Part shown: piece after piece, positions 19,145-25,273 of the stretch
Numbering within the stretch: position 1 is the first letter of the stretch
Layout of the letters: each line of letters begins with the position of its first letter
Assembly (NCBI RefSeq): GCF_019039035.1
Contig: NZ_JAHNZT010000005.1
Coordinates: 62,001 to 126,000 of the forward strand
DNA from: Citreicoccus inhibens
GTDB taxonomy: Bacteria; Myxococcota; Myxococcia; Myxococcales; Myxococcaceae
DNA length: 64,000 nt
Reading direction: 5' to 3'
Position numbers and translations under genes: made by a program
Notes under the pieces: generated by a model
The model's database searches: none
The model's input: only the letters and a program-made list of their open reading frames with translations
Told to the model about the DNA's origin: nothing

Positions 19145-19198
19145 GACGCGCCGCGGAGGGACGCGCTCGGATGCGCGCGCCTCTTTCGCGGTGTCTCA
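19142..19198. terminator. possible bidirectional hairpin between convergent genes
   Basis: TGAGAC (19142-19147) pairs with GTCTCA (19193-19198), and inner CCGCG (19151-19155) with CGCGG (19187-19191). The arms include both stop codons. The stem is interrupted and has no long T-tract, so this is a weak call. Confidence 0.3.
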
Positions 19199-21166
19199 CT
19201 CGGGCCGGGCCTGGGCGCTCTCCAGCCGCACGAAGAACTTGCAGAGCTTGTCTCCGGGGCGGACCTCGCAGTCGGTGCTGTAGGTCCGCTTCGTGGGCTC
19301 GTGACGGAGCGTGAGCTGGTGGCGCCCTTCGTAGAGCGTCACCTGCGGTGGGCCGTGCAGCGGCTGTCCGTCCACCGTCAGGACGGTCATGTCGTCCGGC
19401 CTGCCTCGCAGCGTCACGCTGAGCTGCTGGGGGTTCAAGGAGACGGTGCGCTTCTCGCCCGCCTTGAGTTGAAGCCGAGCGGACTTGTCGAAGCGTGACT
19501 TGTTGGCGGTGCCGGACAGCTCGATGCGCACCACGCCCGGGTCCACCGAGAGCGCGAGCGGCGTGCGCCCGACGACGCGGTCATTGAGTCGCACCTGGCC
19601 GGATGGGCGTGACTCGATTCGCAGCAGCGCCTGGGTGGCGGTGGGCTCGGGCGCATCGGCGGCCTGTGTGCCCGTGGTGTCGGCCTCCGGTGTGGCTTCA
19701 CCCATGTCCAGGGCTCGAGCCGTGACCGCGGTGGGGTGGTCCGCGCCGTGGGGGGCATTGTCCGCGGGCGCGGCGGGGTTGCCCGCCTGGATGTCATTGC
19801 CGCGCGCGACCTGCGTGCCATTGCCGCCGGGCGAAGTCGGGGTGCCCCTCTCGGTGGGCGCGGGAGGAGGGGCCGCTGGCGGTGCTCCAGGCGCGGTGCC
19901 CTGTGCGCCCGCGGCTGGCCGAGGCGCGTCCGCCTGCGCGACCGGCGTGGGCTCGGCGTGGTTGCGGTTTGCCCACCACGCCCCCGCGCTCGCGGCGAGC
20001 CCCAGGCCCGCGAGGATGCCGAGCCCCGCCACCCACGGCCGCGAGGCGGAGCGCCGAGGCAGCGCGGCGGTGACCACGTGCTCGGGCGCGGCCTTCGATG
20101 CGGACTGGTGCGTGGCCTCGGTATGAGACGCGACGCCGCTCACCGAGGACACCGGGCGGGGCGTGCGCGACGTGTTCACCCGGGCCGACGGCGTGGACGG
20201 CGAGGAGGGAGATGAGGGCGGGGGCGCTGATTCATCGGAGGGGAGCGTGGGAAACAGCTCCTTCACCTGATTGCCAATCTCGCGCATCCCGACCCGCCGC
20301 CCCCATTGGAGGAGCAGGTCATCCAGCGCCGCCTGCAACGCGTGGCAGCTGGCGTAGCGGTTCTCGGGCTCGCGTGCGAGCGCCTGGTCGATGACGAGCG
20401 CCAGCGCCTCGGGAGTCTCCGGGCTCAGCTCCCGCACGTCGATCAACGGCTCTTGGAGCACCGCGCGCATGAGCTGCGCGTCGCTCTCGCCCTCGAAGGG
20501 TTTGCGCCCGGTGACCAGCTCATACAGCACCACGCCCAACGCATACAGGTCCGAGCGCGCGCTGGCGGGCTGCCCCATCAGGTACTCGGGCGCCATGTAG
20601 CCCAGCTTCCCCTTCAGGATTCCCGAGCGGGTGTGTTGACTGGCATTGGCGGCCTTCGCGATGCCGAAGTCCATCACCTTCACGTTGCCCGAGCGTGAGA
20701 CGAGCAGGTTGTCCGTGCTGATGTCTCGGTGGACGATGCTCAGGGGCTCGCCCGTGCGCGAATCACACAGCTCATGGGCATAGGCCAATCCCTCACAGGC
20801 CAGCGCGACGATGCGAGTGCTCAACTCCAGCGGAATGCGACGGCCCTGCTGAAGCGCCCGTTTGAAGAGGGCGCGGAGGTTGGGGCCCTCCACGTATTCC
20901 ATGGCAATGAAGTACGCGTCCTCCTCCTGTCCGAAGTCGAAGATTTGGACGATGTTGGGATGGTCCAGCTTCGCCACCAATTTCGCCTCGGAGAGGAACA
21001 TCTCGACGAATTGGGGGTCCTCCGCGAGGTGGGGGAGGATGCGTTTGACAACCAACAGTTTCTCGAAGCCCATGGGGCCGGCTGTCTTGGCGAGGAAGAC
21101 TTCAGCCATGCCGCCCGTGGCGAGCTTTCTCGTGAGCAGGTATCGGCCCATTTCCATCTGCGCCAT
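19196..21166 (-). CDS. Ser/Thr protein kinase with transmembrane segment and PEGA-like repeats
   Basis: 656 residues from MAQMEMGRYL. The kinase domain (8-280) is complete: glycine loop LATGGMAEVF, Lys41 (VVKRIL), Glu60, HRDISTDN (146-153), DFG (166-168) and GYMAPEY in the activation segment. The loop is HRDIS rather than the usual HRDLK, a variant seen in Myxococcota kinases. A Pro/Ser-rich linker, one transmembrane segment (GLGILAGLGLAASAGAWW, about 378-396) and a long Pro/Ala-rich extracytoplasmic stretch follow. The last 150 residues hold one or two PEGA-like modules (SRPSGQVRLNDRVVGRTPLAL; TVDGQPLHGPPQVTLYEG). It is predicted to signal across the inner membrane. AAAGGA precedes the start. 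It is divergent from the kelch gene, 54 bp away. Confidence 0.92.
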   Translation of the reverse strand: MAQMEMGRYLLTRKLATGGMAEVFLAKTAGPMGFEKLLVVKRILPHLAEDPQFVEMFLSEAKLVAKLDHPNIVQIFDFGQEEDAYFIAMEYVEGPNLRALFKRALQQGRRIPLELSTRIVALACEGLAYAHELCDSRTGEPLSIVHRDISTDNLLVSRSGNVKVMDFGIAKAANASQHTRSGILKGKLGYMAPEYLMGQPASARSDLYALGVVLYELVTGRKPFEGESDAQLMRAVLQEPLIDVRELSPETPEALALVIDQALAREPENRYASCHALQAALDDLLLQWGRRVGMREIGNQVKELFPTLPSDESAPPPSSPSSPSTPSARVNTSRTPRPVSSVSGVASHTEATHQSASKAAPEHVVTAALPRRSASRPWVAGLGILAGLGLAASAGAWWANRNHAEPTPVAQADAPRPAAGAQGTAPGAPPAAPPPAPTERGTPTSPGGNGTQVARGNDIQAGNPAAPADNAPHGADHPTAVTARALDMGEATPEADTTGTQAADAPEPTATQALLRIESRPSGQVRLNDRVVGRTPLALSVDPGVVRIELSGTANKSRFDKSARLQLKAGEKRTVSLNPQQLSVTLRGRPDDMTVLTVDGQPLHGPPQVTLYEGRHQLTLRHEPTKRTYSTDCEVRPGDKLCKFFVRLESAQARPE

Positions 21167-21220
21167 GAGTCCTTTTGCTGTGATATGGGTTCGAGAGGAG
21201 GTGCTCCCCCTTAGCACACC

Positions 21221-24200
21221 ATGCAGACCCCCGCTCTTGCTCGCCTTTCCTGGTCGTGGCTGTGTCTCGTGATGGCGTGTACGCCCCCAACTCCTGGCGG
21301 CGAGAGCGCATCGACACCGTCCCCCCATGTCGAGAAACAGACAGTTGTCATCGCGGACCCAGGGCGCCCGTTGGCGGCCCCGCCTGCGATTGCGGCGCTC
21401 GCGCCTGTCTGGGATGCCGTGCAGCCCCTGGGGACCGCGCGCCATTCCCATTCGACCACCTTGCTGCCTTCGGGAAAGGTGCTCGTGGCGGGTGGCTCCA
21501 ATGGCGCGCAAGCTGTTGCCACGGCGGAATTGTATGACCCCACCACCGGCCTCTGGACGCCCACGGGCGCCATGCCGGGCGCGCACTTCGTCCATTGCGC
21601 CACGTTGCTGCCCTCCGGGCAGGTGCTGGTCACGGGCGGCGAGGATGGGACGAAGCCCATTGGCACGGCGGAGCTGTATGACCTGGCCAGCGGGACCTGG
21701 CGCTCCGCCAGGCCGATGTCGACGGCCCGGTCTGGACACACGGCCACGGTGTTGAAGGACGGGCGCGTGCTGGTGGTGGGCGGCAGCTCGGGGACGACCT
21801 CGCTGGCTTCGGCGGAGCTCTATGACCCGTCCACCAACGTCTGGACCGCCACGCGCTCGCTGGTCAACCCGCGCTCGGGCCACACGGCCACGCTGCTCCC
21901 GTCTGGCAAGGTGCTCGTGGGCGGCGGCGCGGGCGTCACCAACGCGGAGCTGTATGACCCTGCGTCGGGGACTTGGAGCCCGGCGGGGACCATGACGACC
22001 CTGCGCAACTACCCGGCCGCCACGGTGCTGGTGTCAGGCCGGGTGCTGGTGGCGGGGGGCCAGTCGAGCAATGGGATGGTGGCCAGCGCGGAGCTGTATG
22101 ACCCTGCAACAAACAGCTGGAGCGCGACGGGCTCGATGTCGATGGCGCGCATGTATCCATCCGCCACGGCGCTGCCGTCCGGAAAGCTCCTGGTGGCGGG
22201 GGGCCTGATTGGAGTCGCGCCGATCCCCGTCGTCGCGGCGGCGGAGTTGTATGACCCCGCGACGGGGACGTGGAGCGCGGCGCCGTCGCTGAGCGTGGGG
22301 CGCTACTGGCACACGGCGACGTTGCTTCCTTCGGGGCGGGTGCTGGTCGTGGGCGGCTTCGACACGAACACCGCCCTGGCCACCAACGAACTGTATGACG
22401 CCGAGTCGCCACACTGGGGCAGCACGGGGACTGTGGCGAGCGCGCGCAACTCCCATGTGGCCACGCTGCTGTCCACGGGCAAGGTCCTGATCGCCGGGGG
22501 CGTGGCCGCTCAGGATGGCCACGTGCTGGCCACCACCGAGCTGTATGACCCGGAGCCGGGGACGTGGGCAGGTGCGACGCCCATGTCCGTGGCGCGCATG
22601 AACCATACGCTCACGCCGCTGCCCTCCGGGCGCGTGTTGGCGGTGGGCGGCTTCGATGGGACGCGGGTGCTCGCGTCGTCAGAGCTGTTCGATCCGCAGG
22701 CGAGTGTCTGGGTTCCCGTGGGGGACATGACCCTGCGTCGGGGACATCACACCGCGACGCTGTTGCCGTCGGGGAAGGTGCTCGTCACGGGAGGCCAGAA
22801 CGAGGATGGCTTCACCAACACGGCGGAGCTGTATGACCTCGCCACGGGGACGTGGAGCCCCACGGGAGTGATGCCCAATATCCGGGCGCGGCACGTGGCC
22901 GTGCTGCTGTCCACGGGCAAGGTGTTGGTGGCGGGGGGCACGGATGGCACCGCGACGCTGGGCCGGGCGGACCTGTACGACCCGGTCACCGGCAAGTGGT
23001 CCGTGACGGGCGACATGTCGGTGGCGCGCCAGGACCCCACGGTGACGGTGTTGCCGTCGGGGCGGGTGTTGGTGGCGGGCGGCTCGGATGGGACGGCCTT
23101 CCTCACCAAGGCGGAGGTCTATGACCCCGTCACGGGGACGTGGACCGCGACGACCAACACGATGACGGCGGGGCGCCGAGGGGCCACGGCGACGTTGCTG
23201 CCATCGGGCCGCGTGCTGCTGGCGGGGGGCTCCAAGACGACACAGCCGCTCACGGCGGAGCTGTATGAGCCGGCGACGGGCTTGTGGACGTCGATTCCTC
23301 CGGCGGGCGGCGTGTATGTGAATCACTCGGCGACGTTGCTGCCTCGGGGCAAGGTGCTGTTGACCGGCGGGCTCACCGCGAACGTCGAACTGCTGGACGA
23401 CCGCGGCGCGTTGGAGGAGTGGCGTCCCGAGGTGACCTCGCCGGACCTGCTGCCCCCCGGAACGACGGTGGTGCTGGCCGGCAAGCTGCTGCGCGGTTTG
23501 TCCGAGGCGAGCAGTGGCGGCTTCAACTCCTCGCCGAGCGGCATCCCGCTGTTCGCGCTCACCTCGCTGGAGTCGGGGGCCCGGGTGACGCTCACGGTGG
23601 ACCGCTTCACGGACACGTCCGCCACGGTTCAGGTGCCGCGCATCGCGCCGGGCGCCTATGTCCTCTCCGTCCTGGTCAACGGGGTGTCGTCGAGTCGCGA
23701 GGTGCGCGTCGCGGATGACACGTTGCCGGAGACGCGGTTCACGACCGCGCCCGCGGCGATCACCAACGTGCGCGCCGGGCCGTTCACGCTGGATTCGCCG
23801 GACAGTGATTTGATGGGCTTCGAGTGCAGCCTGGACTCGGCGGCCTTCGCGCCCTGCGGACGGACGCCCACGCTCCCCGCGCTCGCGGACGGTTCGCACA
23901 CGCTCGCGGCGCGCGCCATCGACACGAGCGGCAACATGGACGCCACGCCCGAGCGCCGCACCTGGACCTTGGATACGCAGCCGCCCGCGCCGCCCGTGGT
24001 GACGTCTCCCGCCGAGGGCGACGAGGTGACGGGATTGGCCACCATCACCGGCACCGCGGAGGTGGGCAGCCAGGTGTCTGTCTATTTCGATGGGGAGCTT
24101 GCGGGCACCGCGACGGCCACGGATGGAAAGTGGAGCGTCGAGTCCGGCCTGGATGTGGACTCGCGCACCCACGCGCTCACCGCCACCGCCACGGACGTCG

Positions 24201-25273
24201 CGGGCAATGTCAGCCAGGGCTCCCCCGCGCTCAAGATCCAGACGCGGCCGGATAGCTATTACGCCGGCTGCGGCAGCGCGGGTGGGGCGCCCAGCCCGTG
24301 GGCCTGGGTGTCGGCGCTGTTCCTCTTGAGCGCGCGCTGGCTGCGGGGCGCCTCGCGGGGCGCCGCGGTGGTCCTGGCGCTGTGTGTCTTCACCGTGCCG
24401 TCGCGCGCCGTCGCGGAGCCGGCCTCGTGTCCCACGTGTCCGCGTCCGCACAATCCCTCGCTGCGCCGCGTGGAGCGGCTCTATGGAGACCTGGAGTACG
24501 AGAAGGCGCTGTCGCTGCTCCAGAAGGTGCGTGCCCAACCGGGCAATGGCCCCGAGGATGTCCTCTGGATGGATTTGATGGAGGGCATGCTGCAGTACGG
24601 GCTGGGCCGCATGGAGCCGTCCGACGCGGCCTTCGGGCGCGCGTTGGCGCAGGACGCCACGGTGTCGCTGCCGGTGGAGGACGCGTCGAGCACGCTGCGC
24701 GAGCGGTTCACTCGCCTGCGTCAGCAGCGCATGCAGGCCCGCGCGCCCGCGCCTCCGGTCACGCCCCCGCCGGCCCCCGCGGCGCCGCCTCCGACACCCG
24801 AGGCGTCTCCGTCGCTGCCCCCCTCCCCCGAGGGGGGCTGGGCGTTGCGCATGGTGGGCCTGCGGGGCGAGCGGGACATGGTGGGCTCCGGGATGTTGCC
24901 CGCGGTCACCGCCGAGGTGGTCCACGCGCCCCACGAGGCGCCGGACGGCTTCGGGTATGGCGCGGCGCTCACGGTGCTGGGCCAGAAGGCGGGGCCGGAC
25001 GTGCGCGCGGAGGGGCGCCTCTTCCTGCCTGGGATTCAAGGCTCGGGCGGGCTGCTGCTGCGGCCGTATGGGTTGCTGGGCGCCACCGCCTTCATTCCGC
25101 AGGGCGCGGTGGGCGGGCGCGCGGGGCTGGGGTTGGGCCTGCGCACGGGGCGCTTCCACGTCTTCGCGGACGTGGCCTACGAGCGCTTCGTCAACACGGA
25201 GCGAGGCTTCGGCGCGGACGCGCTCCTGCTGGCCGTGGGAGCCGGGTGGGCCCCCATGGCCACGAGCTGGTGA
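21221..25273 (+). CDS. kelch-repeat surface lipoprotein with MYXO-CTERM-like tail, fused in frame to a second exported protein
   Basis: 1350 residues without an internal stop. A lipoprotein-type signal (LCLVMAC) leads to 14 kelch-like repeats (75-727) forming two beta-propellers or one large one, then a galactose-oxidase-type C-terminal sandwich (730-830) and two Ig-like domains (835-1010). At 1014-1045, YYAGCGSAGG, a hydrophobic run (WAWVSALFLLSARW) and Arg residues match a MYXO-CTERM sorting tail, which normally ends a protein. Here the frame continues at once into a signal-peptide-like segment (GAAVVLALCVFTVPSRAVA, about 1046-1064), a Cys-containing mature start, TPR-like helices, a Pro-rich linker (1173-1205) and a beta-rich, possibly barrel-like end. 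It may be a true fusion or two genes with the first stop lost. No internal ATG with a Shine-Dalgarno is present at the junction. Confidence 0.82.
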   Translation: MQTPALARLSWSWLCLVMACTPPTPGGESASTPSPHVEKQTVVIADPGRPLAAPPAIAALAPVWDAVQPLGTARHSHSTTLLPSGKVLVAGGSNGAQAVATAELYDPTTGLWTPTGAMPGAHFVHCATLLPSGQVLVTGGEDGTKPIGTAELYDLASGTWRSARPMSTARSGHTATVLKDGRVLVVGGSSGTTSLASAELYDPSTNVWTATRSLVNPRSGHTATLLPSGKVLVGGGAGVTNAELYDPASGTWSPAGTMTTLRNYPAATVLVSGRVLVAGGQSSNGMVASAELYDPATNSWSATGSMSMARMYPSATALPSGKLLVAGGLIGVAPIPVVAAAELYDPATGTWSAAPSLSVGRYWHTATLLPSGRVLVVGGFDTNTALATNELYDAESPHWGSTGTVASARNSHVATLLSTGKVLIAGGVAAQDGHVLATTELYDPEPGTWAGATPMSVARMNHTLTPLPSGRVLAVGGFDGTRVLASSELFDPQASVWVPVGDMTLRRGHHTATLLPSGKVLVTGGQNEDGFTNTAELYDLATGTWSPTGVMPNIRARHVAVLLSTGKVLVAGGTDGTATLGRADLYDPVTGKWSVTGDMSVARQDPTVTVLPSGRVLVAGGSDGTAFLTKAEVYDPVTGTWTATTNTMTAGRRGATATLLPSGRVLLAGGSKTTQPLTAELYEPATGLWTSIPPAGGVYVNHSATLLPRGKVLLTGGLTANVELLDDRGALEEWRPEVTSPDLLPPGTTVVLAGKLLRGLSEASSGGFNSSPSGIPLFALTSLESGARVTLTVDRFTDTSATVQVPRIAPGAYVLSVLVNGVSSSREVRVADDTLPETRFTTAPAAITNVRAGPFTLDSPDSDLMGFECSLDSAAFAPCGRTPTLPALADGSHTLAARAIDTSGNMDATPERRTWTLDTQPPAPPVVTSPAEGDEVTGLATITGTAEVGSQVSVYFDGELAGTATATDGKWSVESGLDVDSRTHALTATATDVAGNVSQGSPALKIQTRPDSYYAGCGSAGGAPSPWAWVSALFLLSARWLRGASRGAAVVLALCVFTVPSRAVAEPASCPTCPRPHNPSLRRVERLYGDLEYEKALSLLQKVRAQPGNGPEDVLWMDLMEGMLQYGLGRMEPSDAAFGRALAQDATVSLPVEDASSTLRERFTRLRQQRMQARAPAPPVTPPPAPAAPPPTPEASPSLPPSPEGGWALRMVGLRGERDMVGSGMLPAVTAEVVHAPHEAPDGFGYGAALTVLGQKAGPDVRAEGRLFLPGIQGSGGLLLRPYGLLGATAFIPQGAVGGRAGLGLGLRTGRFHVFADVAYERFVNTERGFGADALLLAVGAGWAPMATSW
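21443..23400 (+). repeat. 14 kelch-type coding repeats
   Basis: Each unit is about 45-50 codons with the pattern H-x-A-T-L-L-P-S-G-[KR]-V-L-V-x-G-G, then A-E-L-Y-D-P-x-[TS]-G-x-W. The DNA copies are similar enough to cause recombination or assembly errors. Confidence 0.9.

What the first reader, a model, noticed from the sequence alone, without database searches (positions are those of the whole stretch)
21221..25273. Kelch surface protein continues in frame past a MYXO-CTERM-like tail into a second signal-peptide-like segment and a different protein
A sorting tail (AGCGSAGG, hydrophobic run, Arg) should end a protein, yet here about 300 more residues follow: a signal-like sequence, TPR-like helices, a Pro-rich linker and a beta-rich end. 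Either two adjacent genes have fused by loss of a stop codon, or this is a natural architecture in which the tail becomes an internal transmembrane segment. The consequence for the sorting of both halves is a clear question.
Basis: partly seen in the sequence, partly recalled or inferred. Interest (0 to 1): 0.7.

Follow-up and report, generated by a model that had tools for sequence, protein, structure and literature searches.

The report
Kelch surface protein fused to barrel
One uninterrupted myxobacterial gene encodes a kelch surface protein, a membrane-sorting tail, a second export signal and a predicted outer-membrane barrel protein, and the same two-in-one layout is found in many other myxobacterial genomes, which suggests that one precursor is cut into two envelope proteins.

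Summary
In detail: window 21221-25273 is one open frame of 1350 codons that runs through a MYXO-CTERM-like tail into a second signal-like segment and 285 more residues. A sequencing error is very unlikely: the one other species of the genus held has the same frame and neighbours. The added part is a TPR-like helical domain, a proline-rich linker and a predicted 8-stranded outer-membrane barrel. Eight full-length relatives in four other genera, including Archangium and Hyalangium, are separate genes with their own signal peptides, in four of eight loci near kelch genes; the simplest reading is a gene fusion in this lineage. It is not unique. A profile of the junction finds the layout (Cys motif, helix, arginines, signal peptide) stop-free in at least 88 of 142 genomes of the order; I read 82 such cases, many of them orthologues. 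Second parts are mostly TraB-like or other barrels. One such protein (MXAN_5598) is published as a rare case. Best reading: a secretory polyprotein cut by myxosortase and by signal peptidase, giving a lipid-anchored surface protein and its outer-membrane partner 1:1. Cleavage and partnership are inferred, not shown. New variant of a known kind.

The parts
21221..25273 (+). Whole ORF, 1350 aa: kelch/Ig part, internal MYXO-CTERM-like segment, second signal peptide, TPR-like domain, Pro-rich linker, predicted 8-strand barrel
   Evidence: same frame in the second species of the genus
21221..21280 (+). N-terminal signal, by eye of lipoprotein type (LCLVMA|C), Cys at residue 20
   Evidence: sequence; six kelch genes in related loci also have a hydrophobic stretch ending in Ala-Cys; cleavage type inferred
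21434..23236 (+). Kelch repeats (residues 72-672)
   Evidence: Pfam PF13418 3e-94, PF01344 2.1e-86 and others
24041..24232 (+). Bacterial Ig-like domain (residues 941-1004)
   Evidence: PF19077 7.9e-11
24266..24346 (+). MYXO-CTERM-like segment: Cys motif, hydrophobic helix, start of Arg cluster
   Evidence: TIGR03901 10.9 bits, below its cut-off of 20; leave-out junction profile 13.6 bits
24347..24415 (+). End of basic loop and second signal peptide, predicted cut SRAVA|EPAS
   Evidence: hydropathy and charge; -3/-1 Ala invariant in the 10 aligned fused and separate sequences
24455..24742 (+). TPR-like helical domain (five helices)
   Evidence: AlphaFold2; one TPR chain among the 50 fold rows shown (4ymr, Z 8.9); no Pfam hit
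24752..24829 (+). Proline-rich stretch, low confidence in the model
   Evidence: pLDDT under 50
24839..25249 (+). Predicted 8-stranded outer-membrane beta-barrel
   Evidence: 8 strands; OprF N-domain Z 16.4, NspA 15.6, OmpA 14.5; Foldseek NspA E 5e-4

Best explanation
The gene encodes a secretory polyprotein. The N-terminal signal exports the kelch/Ig part. The MYXO-CTERM-like helix stops transfer, with its arginines in the cytoplasm. The next hydrophobic stretch acts as a second signal peptide and exports the TPR/barrel part. Myxosortase (MrtX, encoded in this genome) would cut at the Cys motif and leave the kelch part lipid-anchored for the cell surface. Signal peptidase I would cut at AVA|E and free the TPR/barrel part for the outer membrane. 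The products are made 1:1 and are probably partners, as TraA and TraB are. The single frame most simply arose by fusion of a kelch gene with a downstream barrel gene in this lineage. Shown here: frame, conservation, homology of the parts, predicted fold, presence of MrtX, recurrence of the layout. Inferred: both cuts, localisation, partnership, direction of the change.
For: Same frame and neighbours in the one other species of the genus held. Purifying selection is strongest on the added half: barrel 3 amino-acid changes in 147 codons against 20 silent, TPR part 9 of 110 against 18. Eight separate full-length homologues carry a signal peptide at the same place; the -3/-1 alanines are invariant in all 10 aligned sequences. 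Predicted 8-strand barrel. MrtX in the genome, 443.2 bits against a cut-off of 180. In 82 of 82 profile-selected junctions read the two hydrophobic stretches are separated by net charge +3 to +7; 76 of 82 have AxA after the second one, against 869 of 4100 random windows (21%) of the longest frames. Two cases have, by eye, a lipoprotein-type second signal (L167, L191; the script recognised only L167) and one has a second part with several CxxCH motifs (L201); such proteins are normally exported (own knowledge).
Against: No cleavage data. The window's tail falls below NCBI's MYXO-CTERM cut-off and has GCGS where many others have GCGC. MrtX has been shown to cut C-terminal tags; I saw no test of it on a tag followed by more protein. 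Between the two species the junction has as many amino-acid changes (14 of 62 codons) as silent ones (12), as relaxed signal sequences would, which is no proof of function. Kelch genes were found near only 4 of 8 separate barrel genes, and upstream of them in only two loci. Kelch plus a TPR-like part is fused in another family too (L043), so the fusion may be older than this genus. The 82 junctions were chosen by a profile made from 13 of them and many are orthologues.
Confidence: 0.66

Rival explanations
1. Stable joined protein: the two helices stay as a hairpin in the inner membrane and both halves remain linked across the periplasm.
For: One open frame; no proof of cleavage. A hydrophobic hairpin with a basic loop would be a stable topology.
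Against: The barrel half resembles outer-membrane barrels, and a helical domain plus linker would have to bridge the periplasm. AxA follows the second stretch in 76 of 82 cases against 21% of random windows.
Confidence: 0.12
2. The second half is also, or only, translated from an internal start, so the frame is a near-overlap of two genes of the TraA/TraB kind.
For: GTG and TTG codons lie in frame before or in the second signal. traA and traB overlap by four bases in M. xanthus (PMC3325183, passages) and as ATGA here. ATG lies in 36 of 76 linker windows against 206 of 1766 control windows, by eye mostly as Met inside the first helix; ten lie after the arginines.
Against: No in-frame ATG in the linker window of the window's gene or its sister species. 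In-frame start plus Shine-Dalgarno-like motif in 3 of 76 junctions against 144 of 1766 control windows. That test is weak: only 3 of 9 separate genes used as positive controls have such a motif.
Confidence: 0.15
3. Neutral accident: the fusion changes nothing and one half is no longer used.
For: Only the two species of one genus carry this kelch-TPR-barrel fusion among the matches. A similar-looking case, L103 1-3150, appears to be chance read-through with a long unconserved linker and the barrel out of frame.
Against: The added half is the more constrained one between two species. The same layout recurs with unrelated second parts.
Confidence: 0.05
4. Assembly or sequencing error hiding a stop or frameshift at about 24330-24380.
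For: Draft genome of 123 contigs.
Against: A separate genome of another species has the same frame without gaps in the junction.
Confidence: 0.02

Closest known systems
MXAN_5598 of Myxococcus xanthus (internal MYXO-CTERM; Guo, Haft, Wall 2025, PMC11980579)
   Same: Large surface part, internal MYXO-CTERM, then an outer-membrane barrel in one ORF; the authors propose that the N-terminal part is processed and anchored.
   Different: Its second part is described as barrel plus OmpA domain; the window has a TPR-like domain and a different 8-strand barrel. The paper treats it as rare and perhaps a gene fusion; the passages I read do not mention a second signal peptide.
TraA/TraB outer-membrane exchange pair (PMC3325183)
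   Same: MYXO-CTERM surface protein plus envelope partner encoded next to each other; mutants of either have the same phenotype.
   Different: Two ORFs overlapping by four bases, not one; the window's second half has no hit to the TraB model NF033763.
MXAN_2561 / MXAN_2562 families of NCBIfam (MYXO-CTERM protein; outer-membrane beta-barrel)
   Same: Five of the 70 fused ORFs have an MXAN_2562-type second part; two of them were tested with the NCBIfam model and pass its cut-off (L128, L146).
   Different: Different barrel family. That the M. xanthus genes are neighbours is guessed from their numbers, not tested.
Archaeosortase ArtA substrate with an internal tripartite signal (Abdul Halim 2017; only the title seen, in a reference list)
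   Same: A sorting signal that is processed although it is not at the C terminus.
   Different: Archaeal enzyme and signal; I know of no second signal peptide or barrel there (recalled).

Membership tests
MYXO-CTERM sorting signal (TIGR03901) | Score above the curated cut-off of 20 bits | tested here: not met
   10.9 bits
MYXO-CTERM sorting signal (TIGR03901) | Cys motif, hydrophobic helix, Arg-rich stretch | tested here: met
   charge +3 between the two hydrophobic stretches
MYXO-CTERM sorting signal (TIGR03901) | Position at the very C terminus | tested here: not met
   335 residues from motif start to the stop
MYXO-CTERM sorting signal (TIGR03901) | Myxosortase in the same genome | tested here: met
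   NF040593 443.2 bits, L196
MYXO-CTERM sorting signal (TIGR03901) | Lipidation and cleavage at the Cys motif | not testable with these tools
   needs protein chemistry
Internal MYXO-CTERM fusion of MXAN_5598 type | Surface part, internal motif, outer-membrane barrel in one ORF | tested here: met
   barrel by predicted fold, motif MYXO-CTERM-like only
Internal MYXO-CTERM fusion of MXAN_5598 type | OmpA cell-wall-binding domain and TraB-like barrel in the second part | tested here: not met
   no Pfam or NCBIfam hit for window 24416-25270
8-stranded outer-membrane barrels (OmpA/OprF fold) | Eight-stranded barrel fold | tested here: met
   predicted model only (pLDDT 78, pTM 0.45)
8-stranded outer-membrane barrels (OmpA/OprF fold) | Sequence homology to a solved family member | tested here: inconclusive
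   profile of the barrel finds no PDB sequence up to E 1
Signal peptide of type I | Basic start, hydrophobic core, small residues at -3 and -1 | tested here: met

The most novel reading that the evidence does not exclude
Myxococcota make systematic use of two-cut secretory polyproteins: the MYXO-CTERM tag serves as an internal cleavage site, and a second signal peptide (signal peptidase I or lipoprotein type) launches a second envelope protein, usually the outer-membrane barrel partner of the surface protein. This fixes 1:1 expression and couples the two export steps. It arose several times from adjacent gene pairs, with TraA/TraB as the unfused form.
Probability: 0.5. Interest if true: 0.75.

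Novelty: new variant of a known kind. Interest (0 to 1): 0.62.

Why it matters
Bacterial secretory polyproteins with two export signals in one chain are unusual (own knowledge). If both cuts happen, a sorting tag known as an end tag also works as an internal processing site, and the pairing of a surface protein with an outer-membrane barrel can be read from the genome. That gives candidate partners for MYXO-CTERM surface proteins of unknown role and a handle on how TraA-like receptors reach and work at the surface.

Tried and rejected
Sequencing artefact: set aside, the second species has the same frame. Plasmid homologues of the second half: none at E 1e-5. PDB sequence relatives of the barrel: none up to E 1. 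AlphaFold2 of a class B second part from a single sequence failed (mean pLDDT 37) and was not used. The Shine-Dalgarno test for internal starts has little power. The first genome-contig scan found no relative; the second, with an alignment, found four.

Rows dropped before counts. One search gave 22 barrel matches; the eight separate full-length genes leave out L103 2562-3503 (apparently frame-broken, behind the read-through frame L103 1-3150), L103 7892-8491 (barrel without the helical domain), L114 (183 aa, weak), L113 and L115 (class B type, separate) and the fused ones. Of 150 rows listed, 23 were not counted as full junctions: 12 short, 11 with a stop. The list was cut off there, and the profile was made from 13 such junctions, so the counts are lower bounds for the layout and not a frequency among MYXO-CTERM proteins. 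In the own genome 30 TIGR03901 matches were listed at E 10, many of them weak; I count three as internal MYXO-CTERM-like (L057, L064, L080). Four more weak ones (L071, L072, L075, L079; 16.0 bits or less, under the cut-off) also lie more than 200 residues before a stop; by eye I took them for unrelated membrane or chance matches and did not test them. L199 starts as a class B second part but then runs into unrelated sequence near the contig end. A locus with a stop after the arginines (L203), read on as a control, shows no second signal directly behind it; a second (L204) gave no match.

Print: 'MYXO-CTERM' or 'myxosortase' 14 papers; sorting-signal searches 11 and 15 papers; myxobacteria with polyprotein, signal peptide and outer membrane 1 paper; MXAN_5598, MXAN_2561 or MXAN_2562 2 papers; TraA/TraB with paralog 7 papers. 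Of these I opened three in part (PMC11980579, PMC3325183, PMC4158809). Only PMC11980579, in what I read, describes internal MYXO-CTERM, as rare. Haft's earlier myxosortase survey, cited there, did not appear in the listings; it may say more.
Full report
OBSERVATION. The frame 21221-25273 is open for 1350 codons. Pfam's kelch models have their best stretches between residues 72 and 672 and an Ig-like domain reaches residue 1004. The sequence then reads SYYAGCGSAGGAPSPWAWVSALFLLSARWLRGASRGAAVVLALCVFTVPSRAVA|EPAS, and 285 residues follow from E1066 on. NCBI's MYXO-CTERM model aligns to this tail with 10.9 bits, below its cut-off of 20, so I call it MYXO-CTERM-like. A junction profile built from other loci, leaving out the window and its sister species, ranks this frame first among the window's six-frame ORFs of 40 aa or more (13.6 bits with a bias term of 9.9, E 0.0027; next best 7.1 bits) and places the match at residues 1013-1068.

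NOT AN ARTEFACT. The other genome of the genus held, G001, has the same frame (open frame 1354 aa; 90% identity over the last 338 residues) and the same neighbours, a protein kinase gene and a downstream gene, both on the other strand. Between the two species the barrel has 3 amino-acid changes in 147 codons against 20 silent ones, the TPR-like part 9 in 110 against 18, the kelch part 100 in 700 against 111, the proline-rich stretch 9 in 28 against 12, and the junction 14 in 62 against 12, with no stop and no gap in the junction. The added half holds the most constrained part of the protein.

WHAT THE SECOND HALF IS. No Pfam or NCBIfam model matches it. An AlphaFold2 model from five sequences (mean pLDDT 78, pTM 0.45) has five helices, a low-confidence proline-rich stretch and eight strands. 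VIA-align gives the OprF barrel domain Z 16.4 (rmsd 2.3, 119 aligned), NspA 15.6, OmpW and OmpA 14-15; Foldseek's best is NspA, E 5e-4. So the second half is most likely a periplasmic helical domain plus a small outer-membrane barrel.

SEPARATE RELATIVES. A profile of the barrel finds it in 17 of 145 genomes of the order at E 1e-6, 22 matches. Eight full-length relatives of the whole second half (34-38% identity) in four other genera are separate genes with their own signal peptide. Three of their loci are named by a second search: Archangium violaceum, Hyalangium versicolor and a Myxococcaceae MAG. The -3/-1 alanines of the signal are invariant in the ten aligned sequences, fused and separate. 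In 4 of the 8 loci kelch genes lie near the barrel gene. In two of these (L103, L109) a kelch gene ending in a MYXO-CTERM-like tail and stop lies upstream; in the other two (L106, L108) the kelch gene was seen only downstream. In the remaining four no kelch gene was found in the stretch fetched. The simplest reading is that such a pair fused in the window's lineage. Against a young fusion: in another family of the order (G056, L043) a kelch part, an internal MYXO-CTERM and a TPR-like part with some resemblance to the window's (39% over ~150 residues) are also in one frame, and a similar second part sits behind a MYXO-CTERM at a contig end (G010, L047). No tree was built.

OTHER SECOND PARTS. 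The same barrel also occurs behind a different domain (weakly like DUF3280, LpoB or FlgO, all below cut-off). There the ORF is fused to a MYXO-CTERM surface part in G019 (twice), G017, G089, G056 and G035 (twice). In G042 the two genes are separate, the first ATG of the second following directly on the stop of the first; in G006 the second part also looks separate, near a contig end. In the window's own genome two more ORFs have an internal MYXO-CTERM: L116 (1291 aa) and L117 (3001 aa). Their second parts match NCBI's TraB model below its cut-off of 700 (93.9 and 316.5 bits), while the TraB of this genome scores 998.6. In this genome traA and traB overlap as ATGA, as reported for M. xanthus (PMC3325183, passages read).

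SURVEY. Thirteen junctions were aligned and the profile run on 142 genomes of the order. The output lists 150 matches and was then cut off. Of these, 127 cover the whole junction without a stop, in 88 genomes; 12 are short and 11 contain a stop (from the retyped table). I read 70 of the 127. All 70 have the junction in one open frame. In 66 of 70 the second part matches one of the families found above at E 1e-3: TraB-like 52, class B 8, MXAN_2562-like 5, class D 1. The four others are two with, by eye, a lipoprotein-type second signal before IPT-like domains (L167, L191), one behind a metalloprotease-like part (L170) and one cut by a contig end (L171). A run over 193 genomes of the phylum listed further full matches outside the order in three genomes. 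The four loci read there have, by eye, a class B beginning that runs into unrelated sequence near a contig end, a repeat protein, a part with several CxxCH motifs and a propeller-like part. Without duplicates, 82 junctions were read, many of them orthologues of one another. All have net charge +3 to +7 between the two hydrophobic stretches; 76 have AxA after the second one, against 869 of 4100 random 18-residue windows of the longest frame of each locus. The profile was made from such junctions, so these counts show that the layout is widespread, not what share of MYXO-CTERM proteins has it. In the own genome three of 30 listed TIGR03901 matches are internal and MYXO-CTERM-like.

HOW IT MOST LIKELY WORKS. 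Published work shows that MrtX cuts C-terminal MYXO-CTERM tags, with lipidation of the Cys proposed (PMC11980579: abstract, introduction, first part of the discussion, passages and part of the reference list read). MrtX is encoded in this genome. The layout fits a polyprotein: first part exported, MYXO-CTERM-like helix with its basic end in the cytoplasm, second signal peptide back out, second part exported; myxosortase and signal peptidase release the two products. Everything after the sequence is inferred. MXAN_5598 is listed as an OmpA domain protein in a mass-spectrometry table of M. xanthus vesicle cargo (PMC4158809, table passage), which says that it reaches the envelope but not whether it is cut.

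INTERNAL STARTS. In-frame start codons with a Shine-Dalgarno-like motif lie in 3 of 76 junction linkers against 144 of 1766 control windows, but only 3 of 9 separate genes have such a motif, so the test is weak. ATG is more frequent in the linker windows (36 of 76) than in controls (206 of 1766), by eye mostly as Met in the first helix; ten lie after the arginines. The window's gene and its sister have none there.

NOVELTY. The 2025 myxosortase paper names MXAN_5598 as an atypical internal MYXO-CTERM, perhaps a gene fusion, and likens it to TraA plus TraB. The kind is therefore known. New here, as far as the searches in the library held show, are the kelch/TPR/8-strand-barrel member, its separate relatives, the second signal peptide as a regular part of the layout, and its spread over at least 88 of 142 genomes of the order with several unrelated second parts.

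Noticed in passing
window 21221-21280; L103, L106, L108, L109: The kelch protein and six related kelch genes start with a hydrophobic signal ending in Ala-Cys, as lipoproteins do, so the mature protein may carry lipid at both ends.
   Followed up: partly
L103 (G085:C1:8474000-8487000): Array of kelch genes and barrel genes in alternation, one barrel gene apparently broken by a frameshift and read into from the kelch frame before it.
   Followed up: partly
L167, L191: Internal MYXO-CTERM followed by what looks like a lipoprotein-type second signal and IPT-like domains, in family f5 of the order.
   Followed up: partly
L201 (G153:C165:8500-13500): Internal MYXO-CTERM followed by a second signal and a part with several CxxCH haem-binding motifs.
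   Followed up: no
L116 (G000:C37:114500-122500): A second TraB-like fusion in the same genome, without a Pfam OmpA hit.
   Followed up: partly
window 19196-21883 (-): Protein kinase gene divergent from the kelch gene; kept beside it in the sister species.
   Followed up: partly
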